From NCBI GenBank assembly GCA_008933795.1, contig WBUJ01000009.1:1-53001 (forward strand): a stretch of DNA of 53,001 bases, in the 5' to 3' direction. Shown here one piece after another: positions 23,525-36,619 of the stretch (position 1 is the first letter of the stretch; each line of letters begins with the position of its first letter). A program made the translations under genes and the position numbers. The DNA is from Candidatus Contendibacter sp. GTDB taxonomy: Bacteria > Pseudomonadota > Gammaproteobacteria > Competibacterales > Competibacteraceae. A model generated the notes under the pieces. It was not told the origin of the DNA, made no database searches, and saw only the letters and a list, made by a program, of their open reading frames with translations.

Positions 23525-26500
23525 CTAGCGGGTGGCGCCAGACATGGCGTTGATGATGGCTTGGGTTCGCAGACTGACGGTGGTGATGCGTCCAAGCAGG
23601 TCGATGACCCTTTCCTTGTGGTCAGCGAAGCGGTAGACATCGAACCGGGTGCGGAGCGTGGGGTCTTTCGGTTTGCCTTCCTTGTACTGATCGAGAATGC
23701 ATTCCAGCGCCGAGCGGTTGCCCAGCCGGTATTGCCAGACTTCGGGCGGCAGACCGAGCAGTGTGGTTTGCGCGTCCAGCATAATCCGGCCGTTATCCGG
23801 GTCGGCCTTGAGCAGGGCTTTGGGCGGATGGTCAGCGGCGGGTAAATCAACCCGCTGAAGTGGGTACGGCTCGACCGTTTCATAGCCGATGTGCAGATCC
23901 ATCAATTCCCGGCCCCAGTCAGCCCATTGCCAGAAATCAGGGTGGAACGGGATGCGTGGAAACTCGCGTTTAAGATTCAAGGCGTATTTGTCGCGGTAGA
24001 CCGGATCGTGCAGCGCGCCATAGACGTAGTGAAAGATCGCTTCTTTGGTAATGGGCCGTTTGGGTCTGGCGCGGCCAGGTTTGTAATGCTTTTTGAACTG
24101 ATCGAGCGCCCAGTCGGTGATATTTTCCGTGCGATTACCCTTGGTGTCGTAACGATAGCGCGCTAGAGATTGAGTTTTTTCCAGGACATCATAGCAGGGC
24201 ACACAATTTGTACAAAGCGCTTGGAATGGTTTGTTCGAAGAGGAGCCACTTATCAAAATCACGCTGTTATCGAAGCCTACAGGAAATAGCTGTTGTTGCA
24301 AATAGCGCATTTCATTGAGTTGCTTGCTATAGTAAAGACTGCGGGTTACGAAGGGACGATACAGACTTCTTACGATGAGTTCACTGTCGTAGGTATAACT
24401 GATTCCCTTTTTTAGATCATCCTTCATGGCCCGCGTCCACTTGATCGAATAATCCAGCATATCAGCAAGATGATCGCTGTCCAGTACGCTCGATAGCTTC
24501 ATCAAGTCTGCATTGTATAGCTCGATGATGGTGCGCACCTTCTCTTGAAGTATTTTGGGATCATGGTCATAGACCCATTCATCTCGGGCCGTTACAACAC
24601 CAAGCGAAAACAGTTTGAAAATTGCTCTTTCCTGTGATGTCTGTTTCGCCGCCTTGGCTTCCCTGGAAGCCAGTGGAATCAGCCTGTCAAAATCATTTTG
24701 TGGCAGGTTAATCCAGTTGTGCTGAGGATCGGGACGAATTTCCTGGAACCGGCGATGCCAGATCGGGGTCGCCTGCAGGAATTCGCGCTTTTCATCCGCT
24801 TTCGCATAATCGCGCACCGCTTCATAGAAAATGCGGCAACCCTGCGCGCCTTGCTTTTTGACGCAGAAATAAATGGCGACGCCAACCCGAATCTGATTGT
24901 CAAACACGTTTCCGCCTTCCTGGCGGCGGCGTTCGCCACTGGTGCGGGCGTTGCCTTTGAGATCAACGATTCGGATTTCGTTGAATTCCTGAGTCAGGAC
25001 CTTGCGGAAACCGTCGAACGTGCGGCTGTCAATGAGCGATGAATTGTTGACGAAGGCGATGATGCCATTTTCCGCCACCCGGTCGCTGGCCCAGCGGAAA
25101 AACCGGGCGTACATGTCATACAGCTTGGTTTTCTGCGCGGTGCTGGCGGCAATGTAGGTTTCCCGGATGCGCCGGTCCACTTCCGGGTATTCACGATTTT
25201 TGTTGTTGTCGTTCTCGTTCAACTGATTGGCGTTGTACGGCGGATTGCCGATGATCACGCTGATCGTCCGGCTGTTCTGACGGCGGATGCGGGCAAAGTT
25301 TTCCTCGGTGATCGCGCCGAACAGGTCGCCCGTCGTTCCCCGCGCGGCGGTGTGTGGCCCTACGTTGTCGAGCGTGTCCACGAAACACAGATTGGTAAAT
25401 TCCTGATATTCGCCGGTGATCGCTGCGTAAGTCGCCTCAATATTCAGGTTGGCGACGTAGTACGGCAGGATGGCGACCTCGTTGGCGTGTAGCTCCTCGC
25501 GGTATTTCGCTTTCAGCTTGGCCGGCTGGCCGCGAAAGTGCTCCAGCAGTTCGCAGATAAACGTGCCGGTGCCAGTGGCCGGGTCGAAAATCTCGACATC
25601 GCGGTCAATCAGATTCCGGCCAAAATGGGTTTCGCACAGCCAGTCGGCGCTTTCGATCATGAAGCGCACGAGTTCGTTGGGGGTGTAGATCACGCCGAGC
25701 CGGTCGGCGGCCTTGATGTTGTAGACCCGGTAAAAGTTTTCGTAGAGAACCTTGAGGAAGGTTTGCTTTTCGTGGTGGGTGTCAATCCGCGCGGCGGCGG
25801 CGCGAATTGCGGCGTAGTACGGCGCCAGGCCCTTGAGCGTCTGGAACTTGGTGTTGCCGGTGAAAAAGACCCCTTCCAGCGCGTACAACTCGCGGGCGAT
25901 GTGATTGTCCCGGTGGAACAAGGCGCCGGGGAAGACCGCGACGAACAATTCCTCAGTCAGCACGTGCTGGATGAGCATTTCGCGCACGTCGGCAATGCCC
26001 AGGGTCGGGTTGATTGCCCCCCGCGCCTGATCGAGGAACGCTTGGGCCGCCGTCCGAAAGGTCGGATTGTCGGTGTGCGCCCGTTCGATCATGGCGCGCA
26101 ACGCGGCCAGCACCGCCGGCAGATCAGCCTTGAACTGCGCGACCGCCTGGCGGAATTCGGTGATTTCGGCCCGTTCGTAGGCGAAAAACCGCTTGAGCAG
26201 CTTTTCCAGTTGCGCCACGTCGCCCACCGCGCAGCGCATGACCTCGACCCGGTTCTGGATCAGGACCGCCCGGCTGGAGTCCTCGAAAATGATGTTGTCG
26301 CGCGGATAGCCGCGCTGGAATTTGAACGCGATCTCGGCGTCCAGATCGTCCCGCTCGTCCTTGGCTTCCCAGTAGCCGAACGGGATGCGCAGCGCGTGCA
26401 GCAAGGCGCCGTCCACGTAACGGCGCTCGCCGGCAGGCGTGGCAATCTCGTATTCCGGCACGAAAATCAGTTCATGCGACCGCGCCCAGCCCTTGAGCAG

Positions 26501-26602
26501 GTCCTTGAACGCCTCGCGCACCACCGATTCGCGCTGGCTGCCGGACGCCTGGCGCAGATCGTGAAGCTGGTTGAGATAGTGTTGAATCAGCAGTTGGCTC
26601 AT
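23525..26602 (-). CDS. Compact type ISP-like restriction-modification protein (nuclease plus N6-adenine methyltransferase)
   Basis: A 1,025-residue single polypeptide. Near the N-terminus Asp64, then Glu79-Ala-Lys81 (YWEAK) form a PD-(D/E)xK nuclease pattern. The methyltransferase core has motif I DPATGTGTF (340-348) and motif IV NPPY (453-456), typical of N6-adenine methylation. The C-terminal 400 residues resemble the type ISP specificity domain (DYSIKWTRAMK, SLYRPFVTRSLYYSK). Classical type ISP enzymes (about 1,600 residues) also have a superfamily 2 helicase between nuclease and methyltransferase; none is seen here, so this resembles a type IIG layout. It stands alone between a broken PIN gene and rsmE, and was probably acquired by transfer. 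Confidence 0.85.
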   Translation of the reverse strand: MSQLLIQHYLNQLHDLRQASGSQRESVVREAFKDLLKGWARSHELIFVPEYEIATPAGERRYVDGALLHALRIPFGYWEAKDERDDLDAEIAFKFQRGYPRDNIIFEDSSRAVLIQNRVEVMRCAVGDVAQLEKLLKRFFAYERAEITEFRQAVAQFKADLPAVLAALRAMIERAHTDNPTFRTAAQAFLDQARGAINPTLGIADVREMLIQHVLTEELFVAVFPGALFHRDNHIARELYALEGVFFTGNTKFQTLKGLAPYYAAIRAAAARIDTHHEKQTFLKVLYENFYRVYNIKAADRLGVIYTPNELVRFMIESADWLCETHFGRNLIDRDVEIFDPATGTGTFICELLEHFRGQPAKLKAKYREELHANEVAILPYYVANLNIEATYAAITGEYQEFTNLCFVDTLDNVGPHTAARGTTGDLFGAITEENFARIRRQNSRTISVIIGNPPYNANQLNENDNNKNREYPEVDRRIRETYIAASTAQKTKLYDMYARFFRWASDRVAENGIIAFVNNSSLIDSRTFDGFRKVLTQEFNEIRIVDLKGNARTSGERRRQEGGNVFDNQIRVGVAIYFCVKKQGAQGCRIFYEAVRDYAKADEKREFLQATPIWHRRFQEIRPDPQHNWINLPQNDFDRLIPLASREAKAAKQTSQERAIFKLFSLGVVTARDEWVYDHDPKILQEKVRTIIELYNADLMKLSSVLDSDHLADMLDYSIKWTRAMKDDLKKGISYTYDSELIVRSLYRPFVTRSLYYSKQLNEMRYLQQQLFPVGFDNSVILISGSSSNKPFQALCTNCVPCYDVLEKTQSLARYRYDTKGNRTENITDWALDQFKKHYKPGRARPKRPITKEAIFHYVYGALHDPVYRDKYALNLKREFPRIPFHPDFWQWADWGRELMDLHIGYETVEPYPLQRVDLPAADHPPKALLKADPDNGRIMLDAQTTLLGLPPEVWQYRLGNRSALECILDQYKEGKPKDPTLRTRFDVYRFADHKERVIDLLGRITTVSLRTQAIINAMSGATR

Positions 26603-30578: not shown

Positions 30579-33500
30579 TTATCCGCCCGTATCCCCGGCC
30601 ATCAGCGCCGAGAGGTTCCACGCCTCGGGGTTTCGCCATTGGCGCGTCCAACCGGAAATCGCCTCGGCCGGCATCGGCCGGGCAATTCCGTAACCTTGCG
30701 CCTGATGGCAACCCAGTTGCAGCAATCGAATGCCATGTTCCACGCTTTCCACTCCCTCGGCGATAACCTCCAGCTTGAAAGCGGAAGCAAGACCGATCAC
30801 GCCACGCACGATGGCCAGATCGCCAGGGTCAGCCAGCATGCCGCGAACGAAGCTCTGATCGATCTTCAGGGTTTGAGTCGGTAGATGCCTCAAATAGGTC
30901 AGGGAGGAATATCCAGTCCCAAAATCGTCGATCGCAAACCGGACTCCCAGTTGCCGACACGCCGCGATGATGCGGGAAACTTGCTTGATTCCATCCAAGG
31001 CGGCGGTTTCGAAAATCTCCAGTTCCAGCCTCTCTGGTGGGATGCCAGGATAGCGGGCCAGCAAAGATTCGATCTGCGCCACGAAGTTTGGTTGTTGCAA
31101 GTGGCGCGCGGACAGATTGACGCTGACGGGCAAAGCGAGACCTTTGGCGGCCCAAGCCGTCATCTGTCGAAGGGCGGTCTCCAAGACCCAATGGCCCAGC
31201 GTCTGGGCGAAATCGGAGTTTTCCACCATCGCGATAAAGGCGCCAGGCGCAAGGAGTCCTTGCTCGGGATGTCGCCATCGAAGCAGCGCCTCGGCGCCGA
31301 TCACTCTCCCTTGACGCATGTCGACCTTGGGCTGGTAGTAGAGACAGAACTCCCCGGCGGCCAAGCCTTTCTGGGCGCGTTCCAGCAACTCCCGACGGGT
31401 TTGCGCACGCCGGTCGTATTCCGGGTCGAACAGATGGTAACGGTTGCGGCCCTCTTGCTTGGCCAAATACATGGCCTGATCGGCGTGCCGGATGAGAGCG
31501 TCCGGATCGGCGCCATCGTGCGGAAAAAAAGTAACCCCAATGCTCGCCGAGACCGTCGCTATCTTGGCGCCTATCGAGAACGGCGCCGACAACGCCTCCA
31601 AAATTCGCTGTAGCGCCTGTTCGCCATCGGCGATCGTTTGCAGGTCATCCAGCAGCACCACGAACTCGTCGCCCCCCAGGCGGGCCACCGTATCGTCGGC
31701 GCGCACGCGATTTTGGAGGCGTTGCGCCACCTGGATCAGCAAGTCGTCTCCCGCGGCATGCCCCCAGGCGTCGTTGACGGGCTTGAAGCCGTCCAGGTCG
31801 AGATAGCAGACGGCCAATATCCGCTGCTCGCGCTGGGCCTTGGCTAAGGCATACCGTAGCCGGTCGGCCAGCAAGGCGCGGTTGGGGAGTCGGGTCAGCG
31901 AATCGTAATAAGCCATTTGTTCGAGCCGCTGCTGGTTTTCCTTGAGGGTCGTGATGTCGGCGAACAGGCCCACGTAGTAGGTGATCGCGCCGTCAGCATC
32001 ATGCACGGCCGAGATGGATACATTTTCCGGATAGATTTCGCCGTTTTTTCGCCGATTCCAGATTTCTCCATGCCAATACCCGCGCTCCGCGAGCGTTTGC
32101 CACATTTGGGTGTAAAAAGCGGCGTCGTGGCGGCCGGATTTCAGAAAACTCGGATTGTGGCCTACCGCTTCCGCGCGCGAATAACCGGTGATTTCCACGA
32201 AGGCCTTGTTCACCTCGATGATCGTTCCGGTCGCATCGGCGATCATGATGCCTTCGTGGGCATGTTCGAAAACGGTTGCCGCCAGTCGCAGTCGCTCCTG
32301 GGCGCGCTTGAGTTCGGAGAGATCGACGTCCAGACAGTAGAACTCCGTGTCGTTATCCAGGGTGGTGATCGCCGCGTAGCTCGATAGCACCGTCACCGAC
32401 GAGCCGTCCTTGCGCACGAGCCGCAGTTCCTCGGCGGGACCCACTCTGGGGCGGGTCATGTTGTTCCGCACGGCCTCGCGCATCGGTGGCGGAACGAGCA
32501 AATCCAAAATGCTGCGTCCCACAGCCTCGTCAGCCGTGTAGCCGTAAAGATGCTCGCTGGCCTTGTTCCAATAACGGACGATCCCATCGGGTCCATAGCC
32601 TTGAACGGCGACGGAGGGAACTTCCTCAAACAGGTTGCGGAAACGGGTTTCGCTGCGTCGCAGCGCCTCCTCGCTCCGCTTTCTTTCCGTGATGTCTTGC
32701 AAGCTTTCCATGGCGGCGACGATATGGCCTTGGCGGTCACGGATGAGCGCGGCCGTGAAGAAGAGCCATTTTCCCACCGTCGGGTAATAACCTTCCCCTT
32801 CAAAGATGTGTTCGGCGGGGTTCGCGCTTCGAATGCTGGCGCCGTAATGCGTTGCGATTTCGCCAGGATCGGCGCCATCCAACACCAAATCCAGCAGGCA
32901 GGGACGCGGCGAGTCGTAAAACGGTCGCCAGTGATCCTTGGTGCCGATCATTTGCGCGGCGGACATTCCGGTCATCCGTTCACAGGCGCGGTTCCAGTGA
33001 GTGATTCGATGATTCCGGTCAATCACGAACAGCGGGATTGGACTGCCATCCAGAATGCTCCGCAGTCGCGCCTCGCTTTCCGCCAGCGCGCGCTCCGCTT
33101 CCTTGCGCTGGGTAAAGTTGCTGGCCGTGATCGCGACGCCCGCGAATTTCCCTTGGGGGTTGTGCAAAAGTTCGGCGCCCACACGAAACACGCCGGCGAT
33201 CCGGCCATCCTGGCGCAACAGTTCTTGCTCCTCCAGATAGCTACCCCGCCGGGCGATGGTTTCAATCCAGATTGAAGCGGACGTCACCCGCCGCGCTGGC
33301 AGGTCGCACTCGTGCGCGGCCAGTACCTCCGCCGGCAGCAGCGAATCTACGGCGATTCCCAGCAGCGCATCCTGATTAAAGCCCAGTTCCCGATACGCCG
33401 CCGCGTTGACTTGGACGATGGTTCCATCCGGATCGGTCACCACGAGCACATCCTGGATGCTCCCCAGCACCTGCCCCACGAATCTGGACAGTTCCCGCTC

Positions 33501-33701
33501 GCGCTTCACCGCTTGATCGAGACGATCCCGTTCCGACCGCACCTCCTCGATGATCTGATCCATGCGCCGGCTCAGCGACAGGAGCGCGTGGTCCCGCTTC
33601 GAGACCACGCTCCGCAGTGCCTCAATCTCTTCCTGCAACGGCAGATTGCTGGAAGGGATCGCCGAAGGTTGTGTTAGCCACCCCGAATTGGAATCGATCA
33701 C
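30579..33701 (-). CDS. Multi-PAS GGDEF-EAL cyclic-di-GMP protein coupled to a hydrogenase
   Basis: A protein of 1,040 residues starting at GTG 33701, which overlaps the TGA of the hydrogenase-maturation protease by four bases (GTGA). Order: coiled coil (about 20-70), four PAS/PAC units (about 75-580), GGDEF (about 590-750), EAL (about 765-1015). The GGDEF domain keeps its GGDEF motif with a RADD inhibitory-site motif five residues upstream. The EAL domain keeps EALLRW, DDFGTGYSSL and KIDQSF, so both activities look intact. A longer frame would overlap the protease by 300 bases and is unlikely. It has no transmembrane segment. Being last in the hydrogenase operon, it probably transmits the hydrogenase state to cyclic-di-GMP levels. 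Confidence 0.9.
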   Translation of the reverse strand: MIDSNSGWLTQPSAIPSSNLPLQEEIEALRSVVSKRDHALLSLSRRMDQIIEEVRSERDRLDQAVKRERELSRFVGQVLGSIQDVLVVTDPDGTIVQVNAAAYRELGFNQDALLGIAVDSLLPAEVLAAHECDLPARRVTSASIWIETIARRGSYLEEQELLRQDGRIAGVFRVGAELLHNPQGKFAGVAITASNFTQRKEAERALAESEARLRSILDGSPIPLFVIDRNHRITHWNRACERMTGMSAAQMIGTKDHWRPFYDSPRPCLLDLVLDGADPGEIATHYGASIRSANPAEHIFEGEGYYPTVGKWLFFTAALIRDRQGHIVAAMESLQDITERKRSEEALRRSETRFRNLFEEVPSVAVQGYGPDGIVRYWNKASEHLYGYTADEAVGRSILDLLVPPPMREAVRNNMTRPRVGPAEELRLVRKDGSSVTVLSSYAAITTLDNDTEFYCLDVDLSELKRAQERLRLAATVFEHAHEGIMIADATGTIIEVNKAFVEITGYSRAEAVGHNPSFLKSGRHDAAFYTQMWQTLAERGYWHGEIWNRRKNGEIYPENVSISAVHDADGAITYYVGLFADITTLKENQQRLEQMAYYDSLTRLPNRALLADRLRYALAKAQREQRILAVCYLDLDGFKPVNDAWGHAAGDDLLIQVAQRLQNRVRADDTVARLGGDEFVVLLDDLQTIADGEQALQRILEALSAPFSIGAKIATVSASIGVTFFPHDGADPDALIRHADQAMYLAKQEGRNRYHLFDPEYDRRAQTRRELLERAQKGLAAGEFCLYYQPKVDMRQGRVIGAEALLRWRHPEQGLLAPGAFIAMVENSDFAQTLGHWVLETALRQMTAWAAKGLALPVSVNLSARHLQQPNFVAQIESLLARYPGIPPERLELEIFETAALDGIKQVSRIIAACRQLGVRFAIDDFGTGYSSLTYLRHLPTQTLKIDQSFVRGMLADPGDLAIVRGVIGLASAFKLEVIAEGVESVEHGIRLLQLGCHQAQGYGIARPMPAEAISGWTRQWRNPEAWNLSALMAGDTGG

Positions 33702-34162
33702 AGGCTGTCTTTTGCTCCAAGCAGACGGGCGATGTTCGCCACGGCCACGGGAACCGCGCGCTCCACTGCGGGCGAAAGCCCGGTTTTGAAGACCTGGAGG
33801 GTCGTCACCGCCACCGCCACGAGGTAAGTTGGCGGGAGCGCGCCCCATTCGGCCTGCGCCGACCGCAGCGCAAACCGAAGATCCGCGGCGTGGCTGCTGG
33901 TCCAGCGCGTTTCCGCTTGGAGCATCTCTTCGGCGCGATGGACGGAAACCCGACCGGCGGGCGCGTCGCCACGCAATGCATCCACCAGCACGGCCGCCGC
34001 GCAACCCGTCAATAAACCGGGCAATTCCAGCACGTGAGCGCCCAGATCGAACACTTCAACATCCTCGGGCCATGGGAGTTGACGCAGCGCCTCGGCGACG
34101 CGCGACCCAACGCCATCGTCACCGTGTAGAGGATTGCCAAAGCAGAATACCCGTCGTCCCAT
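33698..34162 (-). CDS. [NiFe] hydrogenase maturation endopeptidase (HyaD/HoxW-type)
   Basis: A 154-residue protease that clips the C-terminal extension of the hydrogenase large subunit after nickel insertion. The family pattern is present: FCFGNPLHGDDGVGSRVAEAL at the N-terminus (with the Ni-sensing Asp/Glu), ..VLVDALRG with the second acidic residue, and a His-containing SSHAADL segment. It begins directly after the large-subunit stop (0-base gap) and overlaps the next gene by 4 bases. Its presence agrees with a large subunit that still carries an extension. Confidence 0.88.
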   Translation of the reverse strand: MGRRVFCFGNPLHGDDGVGSRVAEALRQLPWPEDVEVFDLGAHVLELPGLLTGCAAAVLVDALRGDAPAGRVSVHRAEEMLQAETRWTSSHAADLRFALRSAQAEWGALPPTYLVAVAVTTLQVFKTGLSPAVERAVPVAVANIARLLGAKDSL

Positions 34163-35680
34163 TTAAACTCCAAACCGAATTCGACGACCGGAATCGAGGC
34201 AGTGTACGGCGCAAGCCAGGCAGGGATCGTGAGAACGGATGACATGGCCGATTTCCAGCGGATCCTCGGGATCTTGCACGGGAACGCCGATCAGGCTTTC
34301 CTCCCAGTGGCCCCGGACGCCATCGCTGTCGCGCGGCGAGGCGTTCCATGCGGTCGGGGTGATCACTTGGTAACGGTCAAAAACGCCGTCGCGAATGCCG
34401 ATCCAGTGGCCCAGCGCGCCCCGGGCCGCAGTCAGCATCCCCGCGCCTTGCCCATCCCGCTTGGCGTCCGGTGGAACCGGAATCCTATGGGGTTCGCTGA
34501 TTCGCGTTGCCAACTGATCGAGCGTTCGACGCAGGAAGAGTAGCAGTTGGGACATGCGCCGCAGCCGCGCCAGTTGCCGCAGCCAGGCGCTGCCGCCCTC
34601 GCGGCGATAGAGGTCGACGACCAGCGGATCGCCGTCCACCACCAGATCGGCCAGTGGGCCGGTTTGCATCACCTCGCCGCCGTAGCGCGGCGCCTTGATC
34701 CACGAGTACCGCTCGCTGGCCGGCTGGTAATCGGGCACGGTTTCCCCTTCGAACGGGTGCTTGCCGCCGGGATGTGGCTTGAACCAGGAGTAGCGCACCT
34801 GCTCGCCGATTGCGCTCGGGTCGAGCGGAACCACGGGGGCATCGCTGCCAAAGCGTACTCCGGGAGCGAGCCAGTGGCTCCGGCCAACCATCGGCTCGGG
34901 CAAGGCAAAGGCGCCGAAGGACAGCAAATGAGGCGAACCGAAGCCCATGGTATGCAATCCGGCGAATCGGGCCGCCTGCGAAAGGAGCGTCAATGCGGCC
35001 TCGGGCCGTTCCAACACCCAGTTGCCGAATTCGTCGGCATGGGCGATCTCCAGCCAAGCCCCGAGATCGCCGCCGAGAATGCGCCGTTCCACCCAGCGCG
35101 TGAGTTCGGCGATGAGGCTCTGGCCATCGACGATCCGCCGCGCCGTCGCCGGGGCCGTAACGCCGCCCGGCATCATGTGGGAGGAATGTGGCCATTGCCC
35201 CGCGAACAGCGCCACGATCTCGATGACGCGCCGGGAGTAACGCAGGGTTTCAAGATGCATCCAGCCCTTGAAGGGGGTGAACGCGGCGCCGATCGCGTCG
35301 AACCGAGGCGACGCGGCATAACGGGCATGACAGAAATCCGGTGTGAAAAACAGAAAGGTTTGGCGCAAATCGCTTTGAATGATTTCCGCCATGAGGCTGA
35401 CATTGCGGATATGGACAGCGTTGGCGGGTGGCGCGATGTCCCAGGCGTCTTCCAGGGCGCGAACCGCTGCATACAGATGGGCCGTGCTGCATATTCCACA
35501 AATGCGCGGCGTGATGACCAACGCATCCATGGGCGTCCGGCCCAGCATGATTTGTTCGAAGCCCCGGTATGTCGTCCCGATGCAGCGCGCGTCGGCGACC
35601 CGCCCATCCTCGAGCTCCACCTGAAAGGTCAGGTCGCCCTCCACCCGGTTCAACTCCAGTTCCAGCGTGCGTCTCGTCAT
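34163..35680 (-). CDS. [NiFe] hydrogenase large subunit, cytosolic group 2-like
   Basis: Catalytic subunit of 505 residues. The NiFe site is formed by RICGIC (Cys61, Cys64) followed by His68, and by DPCLAC (Cys487, Cys490) with His493. The N-terminal NRVEGD (conserved Glu14) supports proton transfer. Behind His493 there are 12 residues (CLDSGRRIRFGV), a short extension that the adjacent protease would remove. Lengths and motifs fit group 2 (soluble uptake or sensory) hydrogenases. Regulatory HoxC/HupV types are reported not to need C-terminal processing, so this one differs. It is translated with the small subunit (gap 3 bases). Confidence 0.93.
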   Translation of the reverse strand: MTRRTLELELNRVEGDLTFQVELEDGRVADARCIGTTYRGFEQIMLGRTPMDALVITPRICGICSTAHLYAAVRALEDAWDIAPPANAVHIRNVSLMAEIIQSDLRQTFLFFTPDFCHARYAASPRFDAIGAAFTPFKGWMHLETLRYSRRVIEIVALFAGQWPHSSHMMPGGVTAPATARRIVDGQSLIAELTRWVERRILGGDLGAWLEIAHADEFGNWVLERPEAALTLLSQAARFAGLHTMGFGSPHLLSFGAFALPEPMVGRSHWLAPGVRFGSDAPVVPLDPSAIGEQVRYSWFKPHPGGKHPFEGETVPDYQPASERYSWIKAPRYGGEVMQTGPLADLVVDGDPLVVDLYRREGGSAWLRQLARLRRMSQLLLFLRRTLDQLATRISEPHRIPVPPDAKRDGQGAGMLTAARGALGHWIGIRDGVFDRYQVITPTAWNASPRDSDGVRGHWEESLIGVPVQDPEDPLEIGHVIRSHDPCLACAVHCLDSGRRIRFGV

Positions 35681-35683
35681 CGC

Positions 35684-36619
35684 TCAAGGCTCCATCTCGC
35701 GGCGGATGAGTCGCGCTGGCGTCGCCTCGTGCGCAAGGTCCTTATAGGCCATGTAATTGGCCCGCTGGACCCCGATGGGGAGCCGCAAGGGAATATGCCC
35801 GATCTTTTCGGTCAGGAACAGGTTGGTGTCGCGGGGAAAGTCTGGCGACGTGCAACCGAAGCAGGGAACGCCGACCCGGGTCTTGCTGCTGCGGCCATTC
35901 CATAATTCCTGATTGCAGGTCGCCAAGGTCAATGGTCCCTGGCAGCCGAGGTTGAAAAACAGACAGCCCCGGTCGCCGAGGATGGTATCCTCAACGTCAT
36001 ACTCATGATATTCGTTGCGCGAGCAACCCTGATGAACCGTGGTGCTAAAGAAGTCTGCTGGACGTTGTAGCTCGTCCAGCGTCACCGGTAAGCCACGGAG
36101 CAGAAACGCCAGAAACCTGGCAATGGTGTTCGGATGGGTGGGACAGCCGGCCAGATTGATGACGGGGAATCCGCTCCGGCTCCGCCAAGCGGCCGGCAGC
36201 AGCCCCCCGGGAGACGCTTTGTCGAACTGCATTCCGACACAGTCGGCGGGATTGGGCGGCGCGGCGTGAATTCCCCCGTAGGCGGCGCAGGTGCCGACGG
36301 CCAGGACATAGGTGGCGGCCTCGGCCAGTTCCGCGATCGCGTCCTTCTTGCCCCGATCCCGCAGCGAATCCCAAAGCCCGGTATTTCTCGGCCCGGCGAT
36401 CAGGCTACCCTCGACGCACAGGATATCCAGGGGAGTCCGACCGGTCGTAATGGCGTCGATGAGCCACTCCAGGTAGCGCGGCGGCGCGACGGAAAGCGAG
36501 GGATGCCAGAGCAACTCGAGACCTTCCTCGATCAGTTGTTCCAGGGTTGGATTGTCGGCGCATAGCAAGGACAGGGTGTCCCCACCGCACGCGCCCGCCT
36601 GCATCCATAATAGCCGCAT
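35684..36619 (-). CDS. [NiFe] hydrogenase small subunit without Tat signal
   Basis: Electron-transfer subunit of 311 residues. Residues 5-16 read WMQAGACGGDTL, so the first proximal-cluster Cys is Cys11. The usual second Cys of the CxxC pair is Asp14, as in other group 2 enzymes where Asn or Asp occurs here. The medial and distal cluster ligands lie in HQGCSRNEY, GCLFFNLGC, LATCNQELW and PCFGCTSPDF. No twin-arginine signal precedes it, so the enzyme is cytoplasmic. Start 36619 is preferred over 36643 because GGAGGG lies six bases upstream. Confidence 0.92.
   Translation of the reverse strand: MRLLWMQAGACGGDTLSLLCADNPTLEQLIEEGLELLWHPSLSVAPPRYLEWLIDAITTGRTPLDILCVEGSLIAGPRNTGLWDSLRDRGKKDAIAELAEAATYVLAVGTCAAYGGIHAAPPNPADCVGMQFDKASPGGLLPAAWRSRSGFPVINLAGCPTHPNTIARFLAFLLRGLPVTLDELQRPADFFSTTVHQGCSRNEYHEYDVEDTILGDRGCLFFNLGCQGPLTLATCNQELWNGRSSKTRVGVPCFGCTSPDFPRDTNLFLTEKIGHIPLRLPIGVQRANYMAYKDLAHEATPARLIRREMEP

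What the first reader, a model, noticed from the sequence alone, without database searches (positions are those of the whole stretch)
30579..36619. Candidate H2-to-cyclic-di-GMP module: Tat-less [NiFe] hydrogenase operon ending in a PAS-GGDEF-EAL protein
Seen: small subunit, large subunit and maturation protease are nearly contiguous (gaps 3 and 0 bases). The protease overlaps the GTG of a multi-PAS-GGDEF-EAL gene by 4 bases, so the signalling protein is translated with the hydrogenase. No Tat signal and no membrane cytochrome are encoded. Known: group 2b hydrogenases (HupUV/HoxBC) sense H2 through a histidine kinase. I recall that a group 2c of hydrogenases linked to cyclic-di-GMP proteins has been proposed from sequence surveys, with little experiment. 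Inference: the hydrogenase reduces or docks to a PAS domain and so sets diguanylate-cyclase or phosphodiesterase output. It differs from HupUV/HoxBC in having a 12-residue C-terminal extension plus its own protease.
Basis: partly seen in the sequence, partly recalled or inferred. Interest (0 to 1): 0.85.

Follow-up and report, generated by a model that had tools for sequence, protein, structure and literature searches.

The report
Likely hydrogen-to-cyclic-di-GMP sensor operon
Four tightly packed genes encode a soluble hydrogen-splitting enzyme, its maturation protease and a protein with cyclic-di-GMP-making and -breaking domains; together they likely sense hydrogen gas and would turn it into a cyclic-di-GMP signal, a link that still needs a direct experiment.

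Summary
The operon is real: SSU, LSU, protease and PAS-GGDEF-EAL genes, gaps 3 and 0 bases, overlap 4. The LSU falls in a 2c-type clade apart from 2a and 2b; HydDB already lists 2c as "Diguanylate cyclase-linked (putative)", so the module type is known as a proposal. Added here: (1) a signalling gene follows the hydrogenase in 61 of 64 2c loci, 0 of 15 2a controls. (2) Outputs swap (GGDEF-EAL, kinase, GGDEF alone; at least 3 changes) while an N-terminal coil stays; in clade A a coil model from GGDEF partners finds every kinase partner and the reverse. (3) In 398 genomes the clade-B coil occurs 6 times, each within 0.6 kb of a 2c LSU. (4) Some partners carry a Rieske domain; in three loci the protease is fused to the kinase. 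(5) Asp/Glu at the second proximal-cluster position in 62 of 62 readable 2c small subunits. Against: three relatives keep the cyclic-di-GMP gene (broken in one) without the hydrogenase. Docking, H2 sensing and any cyclic-di-GMP change are inferred.

The parts
35684..36619 (-). [NiFe] hydrogenase small subunit, 311 aa, no Tat leader
   Evidence: PF01058 and PF14720 over cut-off; nearest solved chain Huc small subunit 7uur_D, E 2.1e-78; both calls had one extra codon before the start
36578..36589 (-). Proximal-cluster motif Cys-Gly-Gly-Asp: Asp where HoxB has Cys and Huc-type rows have Asn
   Evidence: sequence; D/E in 34 of 34 clade-A and 28 of 28 clade-B small subunits that could be read, N in 13 of 13 readable 2a, C in 2 of 2 readable 2b
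34163..35680 (-). [NiFe] hydrogenase large subunit, 505 aa, 2c-type
   Evidence: PF00374; tree; 58% identical to the Ideonella plasmid protein
34166..34201 (-). 12-residue C-terminal extension CLDSGRRIRFGV after DPCLACAVH, expected protease substrate
   Evidence: sequence and alignment A1; cleavage itself inferred from the family
33698..34162 (-). Hydrogenase maturation protease (HycI family), 154 aa
   Evidence: PF01750 over cut-off, TIGR00072 over cut-off
30579..33701 (-). Multi-PAS GGDEF-EAL protein, 1040 aa, GTG start overlapping the protease by 4 bases
   Evidence: Pfam, junctions
33429..33638 (-). Candidate hydrogenase-docking module: long helix (residues 17-81) running into the first PAS
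   Evidence: model A2 match E 2.7e-24, by construction; reciprocal HMM tests; AlphaFold2 helix
33114..33458 (-). First PAS domain
   Evidence: AlphaFold2 model and Foldseek matches to PAS/LOV structures
31440..31913 (-). GGDEF domain, GGDEF signature and RxxD inhibitory-site motif intact
   Evidence: PF00990 E 7.8e-50; motifs
30675..31379 (-). EAL domain; the catalytic motifs searched for are present
   Evidence: PF00563 E 1.9e-69; motifs, recalled patterns

Best explanation
The four genes encode a cytosolic 2c-type [NiFe] hydrogenase, its maturation protease and a coil-PAS-GGDEF-EAL protein, and they are predicted to form an H2 sensor in which the hydrogenase likely docks on the partner's N-terminal helix and first PAS and would thereby switch cyclic-di-GMP synthesis or breakdown. 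Shown: the genes, their order and its conservation, the clade, the coil shared between partners with different output domains, and intact GGDEF and EAL motifs. Inferred: the protease trims the 12-residue tail; the mature dimer splits H2; electrons pass the small-subunit clusters to the docking face; the change reaches the output through the helix and PAS domains. In relatives with a Rieske domain ahead of the coil the wire would be direct; in the window, which lacks it, the signal would pass by redox change of a PAS cofactor or by conformation. The direction of the change is open; the two best-scoring named families are phosphodiesterases (below their cut-offs), so my bet is a change in net breakdown.
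For: Clade: window in a 41-row set (SH-aLRT 100), inside a 71-row 2c set (98), apart from 17 2a-type and 6 2b-type rows. Context: signalling gene within 1.6 kb downstream in 33 of 34 clade-A and 28 of 30 clade-B loci, 0 of 15 2a controls (rule); loci were picked by the LSU alone. Coil, clade A: HMM from the 23-row GGDEF set finds all 15 kinase rows (1.6e-20 to 1.4e-5) and a 16th in a split frame; kinase-only HMM finds all 23 (1e-8 or better); apart from these and two HoxJ rows the best other ORF is E 0.94. Genome-wide: clade-B coil 6 matches in 398 genomes, all beside the 6 clade-B-like LSUs; clade-A model 27 matches in 369 genomes, 17 on one contig with a group-2 LSU (0.3-21.6 kb) and 20 within 13 kb of a PF00374 match, one of those below Pfam's cut-off; genomes with both 18 against 1.8 expected, P 4e-19 (the 18 includes the window's genome). 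Rieske motif in 15 partners, PF00355 over cut-off in 3 of the 4 scanned. Protease fused to coil-PAS-kinase in 3 loci, Pfam run on two. Precedents: complex formation with HoxJ is required for H2 sensing (PMC10073562, passages); HucE, needed by group 2a Huc, has a Rieske motif (PMC6883350, passages).
Against: No complex, activity or cyclic-di-GMP measurement exists here. Of 9 family genomes with a strong coil match, 3 have no intact 2c LSU: G038 keeps LSU and protease stubs, G014 a protease stub (its own GGDEF-EAL gene is also broken), G034 the first 14 residues of the small subunit ahead of the partner, whose coil start is missing. So the partner may act alone, or these are decaying loci. The window partner has no Rieske domain. 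The similarity to HoxJ sits mostly in the PAS start: coil columns 1-50 alone do not reach HoxJ (E 8.2 at best), columns 46-70 do (2.9e-4 at best); columns 1-50 also give two unrelated coiled-coil frames E 4e-5 and 3e-4. Of the 27 clade-A-model matches 7 are not near a hydrogenase gene. Coil clades A and B are not detectably related (hhalign probability 3.8). Extension and protease are not universal: 13 of 30 clade-B loci have no protease next to the LSU by the script and L069 has no extension. The window's L2 motif SHDPCLACAVH departs from the 2c consensus SFDxCLVCTVH quoted in PMC4853749.
Confidence: 0.6

Rival explanations
1. The hydrogenase is an energy-yielding uptake enzyme whose electrons go to metabolism, and the cyclic-di-GMP gene is only co-transcribed to adjust lifestyle when the operon is on.
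For: Nearest solved relatives are Huc chains, an uptake enzyme; 12-residue tail and protease as in catalytic enzymes; the proximal Asp recalls Huc's non-Cys ligand (alignment).
Against: It lies outside the 2a set; 2a controls have no signalling gene, 0 of 15; no membrane or quinone partner in the operon; partners with different outputs share one coil; the window's own genome has a Hyd-2-type enzyme elsewhere.
Confidence: 0.17
2. The PAS-GGDEF-EAL protein senses redox state or O2 through its own PAS cofactors, and the hydrogenase only supplies or drains electrons; H2 is not the signal as such.
For: Several PAS regions; the first PAS model matches heme and flavin PAS structures among others; the partner persists without the hydrogenase in three relatives.
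Against: Clade-B partners L072 and L073 have the coil directly before GGDEF with no PAS seen (Pfam on L073 only), and the coil still tracks the hydrogenase.
Confidence: 0.13
3. The flow runs the other way: the signalling protein, with the protease, controls assembly or activity of the hydrogenase.
For: Protease fused to the kinase in L031, L033, L055; 4-base overlap in the window.
Against: Fusion fits either direction; the sensory hydrogenase-kinase pair of group 2b runs from hydrogenase to kinase (PMC5665086, PMC10073562, passages).
Confidence: 0.06

Closest known systems
HydDB group 2c [NiFe] hydrogenases, 'Diguanylate cyclase-linked (putative)' (PMC5037454, table passage)
   Same: Group 2 large subunit, linked cyclic-di-GMP gene, role described there as undetermined; Methylobacter, reported to have 2c (PMC12810054 and PMC4853749, passages), falls in the same 100-support set as the window.
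   Different: The clade's partners are not only diguanylate cyclases: 16 of 34 clade-A and 24 of 30 clade-B loci have kinases. Shared coil, Rieske forms, protease fusion and the Asp/Glu cluster position were not in the passages read.
Group 2b HoxBC/HupUV with HoxJ/HupT
   Same: Cytosolic hydrogenase with a PAS signalling protein; PAS start and adjoining helix similar; small-subunit tail resembles HoxB by eye.
   Different: Output GGDEF-EAL instead of kinase; C-terminal extension plus protease; CGGD instead of CGGC proximal motif.
Group 2a Huc with HucE
   Same: Closest solved hydrogenase; non-Cys at the second proximal position; HucE has a Rieske motif (PMC6883350, passages).
   Different: Asn not Asp/Glu; no signalling gene in any of 15 loci; separate set in the tree.

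Membership tests
HydDB group 2c | Large subunit groups with 2c rows apart from 2a and 2b | tested here: met
   2c rows identified by genus named 2c in papers (Methylobacter), not by the HydDB classifier
HydDB group 2c | HydDB classifier verdict | not testable with these tools
HydDB group 2c | Linked diguanylate cyclase/phosphodiesterase gene | tested here: met
HydDB group 2c | L2 motif SFDxCLVCTVH as quoted in PMC4853749 | tested here: inconclusive
   Window has SHDPCLACAVH; many relatives SHDPCLVCTVH. The same paper assigned SHDaCLVCTVH to 2c
Group 2b HoxBC/HupUV | No C-terminal extension and no protease | tested here: not met
   12-residue extension and HycI gene
Group 2b HoxBC/HupUV | Histidine kinase partner | tested here: not met
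   Partner ends in GGDEF-EAL
Group 2b HoxBC/HupUV | Proximal motif CGGC (as in L010, L082) | tested here: not met
   CGGD
Group 2a (Huc/HupSL) | Large subunit inside the 2a-type set | tested here: not met
Bifunctional GGDEF-EAL protein | GGDEF signature and EAL catalytic motifs intact | tested here: met
Bifunctional GGDEF-EAL protein | Makes or breaks cyclic-di-GMP | not testable with these tools
   Needs enzyme assay
H2 sensor | Output depends on H2 | not testable with these tools
   Needs experiment
Rieske-bearing 2c partner | CxH-x-CxxH domain ahead of the coil | tested here: not met
   Absent in the window; present in 15 other partners and in G414

The most novel reading that the evidence does not exclude
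2c hydrogenases are a plug-in H2 sensor: one hydrogenase with a dedicated docking helix onto which evolution has hung cyclic-di-GMP enzymes, histidine kinases or a bare GGDEF domain, with H2 electrons led straight into the signalling protein, in some lineages through a built-in Rieske cluster. The window is the Competibacteraceae cyclic-di-GMP version.
Probability: 0.42. Interest if true: 0.85.

Novelty: new variant of a known kind. Interest (0 to 1): 0.66.

Why it matters
HydDB lists 2c with an undetermined role. The shared coil, the swapping outputs and the Rieske forms turn that guess into a precise test: which 70 residues bind the hydrogenase, and whether H2 reduces the partner. If true, cells read H2, an important gas in sludge, sediment and methane-rich water, into the signal that governs biofilm and motility, and the docking module could serve as an H2 input for other outputs.

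Tried and rejected
Rejected: (a) plain uptake enzyme of group 2a: tree and controls against. (b) The PAS alone as the shared part: clade-B partners L072 and L073 have the coil directly before GGDEF with no PAS seen (Pfam on L073 only), and clade-A columns 1-50 alone still find clade-A partners that are not in the model (G285 at 7.9e-11, the split L027 at 5.4e-17). (c) Clear homology of the coil itself with HoxJ: not supported, since columns 1-50 alone miss HoxJ; only the PAS start, with help from the helix, supports it. (d) One origin for both coil clades: no signal. (e) A sigma-54 site before the operon: 216 matches at 3 mismatches in the window against 235 expected, no information. (f) A solved relative of the coil: best E 0.034, coiled coils. 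(g) Direct structure match of the Rieske piece: Foldseek lists Rieske ferredoxins only at E about 1e-2, so Pfam and the motif carry that claim.

Rows dropped or set by hand: L074 left out of the tree; L014 labelled GGDEF-EAL although its partner is split into two frames; L092, L093, L095, L096 labelled GGDEF-EAL before their full genes had been read, later confirmed. 30 of 94 tree rows had no output label. The 23-row GGDEF set includes two PAS-only rows (L014, L032) and the family rows L092, L093, L095, L096 and L109 (partial genes at that time). Model A2 used 24 of 38 clade-A rows; A5 used 20 of the 24 clade-B rows found by pattern (six more clade-B coils came by HMM). A2 holds rows from G000, G013 and G038, so their matches are by construction; the genomes behind A5 rows may also be among the unnamed 398. 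In one search at most 16 candidates a genome were scored, at most 17, at most 4 and 3, so misses are possible. The overlap of 18 genomes was counted by eye and typed into. One search also gave 5 weak matches (1.6e-4 to 6.8e-4) in 4 family genomes, not followed except G022. Searches used a small-subunit reference one codon too long at the start.
Full report
WHAT IS THERE. On the - strand at 30579-36619 lie a hydrogenase small subunit (35684-36619), large subunit (34163-35680), HycI-type maturation protease (33698-34162) and a 1040-residue PAS-GGDEF-EAL protein (30579-33701, GTG start), with gaps of 3 and 0 bases and a 4-base overlap. The small subunit starts MRLLWMQ, so no Tat leader; the large subunit has 12 residues after DPCLACAVH. 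GGDEF, the RxxD site and the EAL motifs searched for are intact. Upstream is a divergent ABC-transporter-like gene, downstream an unrelated gene on the other strand (function by eye). The closest relative with an organism name is from a Candidatus Competibacteraceae bacterium (80% identity); I take the window to be of that family.

CLASS. Nearest solved chains are those of Huc. In a tree of 94 large subunits (quick method, SH-aLRT only) the window sits in a 41-row set (100), inside a 71-row set (98), apart from 17 rows of 2a type (support 86) and 6 of 2b type (100). Methylobacter, reported to have 2c (PMC12810054, passages; PMC4853749, passages), is in the 41-row set. HydDB calls 2c 'Diguanylate cyclase-linked (putative)', role undetermined (PMC5037454, table passage). 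Group labels of rows rest on this, on motifs and on HoxC of pHG1; the HydDB classifier was not run.

CONSERVATION. Of 39 family genomes, 6 have an intact 2c large subunit (74% identity or more, the window's own included) and G038 a fragment. Four-gene order: seen in own, G013, G033, G025, G026; G027 has SSU-LSU and protease-partner on two contigs, each at a contig end. Ideonella dechloratans carries the same four genes on a 709-kb plasmid.

PARTNERS SWAP, COIL STAYS. 80 loci were taken by large-subunit similarity, the Ideonella plasmid locus likewise. By clade, looking within 1.6 kb of the large subunit: clade A, 34 loci: 15 GGDEF-EAL, 16 kinase, 2 PAS-only (L014 split, L032 at a contig end), 1 none (L021, contig end); clade B, 30 loci: 24 kinase, 2 GGDEF, 2 PAS-only, 2 none (yet the clade-B coil HMM finds a coil frame in both); 2a, 15 loci: none. 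A protease follows in 33 of 34, 17 of 30 and 14 of 15. Three output changes are needed on the tree and starred branches force three for the kinase label. In clade A the partners share about 70 N-terminal residues, a long helix running into the first PAS: an HMM from the 23-row GGDEF set finds all 15 kinase rows (E 1.6e-20 to 1.4e-5) plus a 16th in a split frame; the kinase-only HMM finds all 23 (E 1e-8 or better); next come the two HoxJ rows (0.72 and 1.3 with the first, 0.0084 and 0.12 with the second) and then chance level (2.8; 0.94). AlphaFold2 gives one helix 17-81 then a PAS for the window (mean pLDDT 83.6).

GENOME-WIDE TEST. Model A2 (24 clade-A rows, no HoxJ) against 369 class genomes: 27 matches in 25 genomes. 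Three are 2c partners (one of them the window itself). Seventeen look like HoxJ/HupT by sequence (my reading). Seventeen of 27 share a contig with a group-2 large subunit at 0.3-21.6 kb; 20 of 27 lie within 13 kb of a PF00374 match, one of those below Pfam's cut-off; 7 do not. Genomes with both: 18, expected 1.8, P 4e-19. Eight of the 26 genomes with a group-2 large subunit have no coil match; some of these are 2a-like. The split test tempers this: columns 1-50 alone miss HoxJ (8.2 at best), columns 46-70 find it (2.9e-4 at best), and columns 1-50 also score two unrelated coiled-coil frames at 4e-5 and 3e-4. So the HoxJ link is the PAS start with help from the helix. For clade B (A5, 49 positions) 398 phylum genomes gave 6 matches in 5 genomes, each within 0.6 kb of one of the six large subunits of 43-47% identity, and no others; in the stretches held, their partners show 4 kinases and 2 GGDEF proteins. 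G414, found, has a clade-A coil 0.9 kb after its 2c gene.

RIESKE AND FUSION. Fifteen partners have CxH-x-CxxH ahead of the coil: nine of Methylobacter type (eight with GGDEF and EAL in one frame, L014 split) and six kinases. Pfam Rieske is over cut-off in L012, L026 and L075, below it in L040. G414 has the motif too. The model of L012 has a separate beta domain, pLDDT about 79-88. HucE, which Huc needs for activity, has a Rieske motif (PMC6883350, passages), a precedent for such a cluster at a group 2 hydrogenase. In L031, L033 and L055 protease and coil-PAS-kinase are one frame, with HycI, HisKA and HATPase over cut-off in L033 and L055. The window lacks the Rieske domain.

CLUSTER LIGAND AND TAIL. 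The second proximal position is Asp/Glu in 34 of 34 clade-A and 28 of 28 clade-B small subunits that could be read (7 and 2 not readable or not taken), Asn in 13 of 13 2a (4 not), Cys in 2 of 2 2b (4 not). Huc has three [3Fe-4S] clusters, a type with higher potential (PMC10017518, passages); the regulatory hydrogenase has [4Fe-4S] clusters, and replacing the 50-residue HoxB extension prevents the double dimer (PMC5665086, passages). The 2c tail IP-LP-GV-R-YMAYK-LA-AAP-R resembles HoxB more than Huc by eye. What the Asp does here is a guess.

AGAINST. Nine family genomes have a strong coil match but only six an intact 2c large subunit; G038, G014 and G034 have stubs. The hydrogenase is gone there while the partner gene remains, intact over GGDEF and EAL in G038 and G034 (G034 without its coil start) and broken in G014. 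Either the partner works alone or these loci are decaying.

OWN GENOME. HypD is present. C263 holds a HybA-like protein (over cut-off) and a large subunit nearest to hydrogenase 2 (below its cut-off); C200 holds another large subunit nearest to VhuA (below cut-off). PF00374 hits included no HoxBC-like gene that I could see, so the 2c enzyme is the only H2-sensor candidate of the [NiFe] type found.

LITERATURE. Searches in the held library showed, in listings and passages, no experiment on a 2c hydrogenase, no Rieske-bearing 2c partner and no shared coil. Many subscription papers are not held, Greening 2016 among the missing, so this is not proof of absence.

VERDICT. A real member of a class proposed before, with new anatomy that makes the proposal testable.

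Noticed in passing
L182 (G014:C231), L183 (G034:C523), L184 (G038:C213): Three relatives lost the hydrogenase genes by different deletions but keep the cyclic-di-GMP gene (broken in G014).
   Followed up: partly
L031, L033, L055: Hydrogenase maturation protease fused in frame to a coil-PAS-histidine kinase hybrid.
   Followed up: partly
L052, L054, L057: Loci that appear to carry two hydrogenase gene sets side by side.
   Followed up: no
L066, L070: Clade-B kinase partners with no PAS called; Pfam gives L066 a GAF domain after the coil.
   Followed up: no
L014, L027: Partner gene split over two reading frames; real break or sequence error not decided.
   Followed up: no
window 23525-26602, - strand: Large frame with an NPPY-like motif, by eye a DNA methylase or restriction-type protein; not searched.
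   Followed up: no
L206 (G414:C14): A Rieske-coil-PAS-GGDEF-EAL partner in a genome outside the window's class (same phylum), beside a 2c hydrogenase; the same genome also has a 2b-like large subunit with a HoxJ-like match 2.2 kb away.
   Followed up: partly
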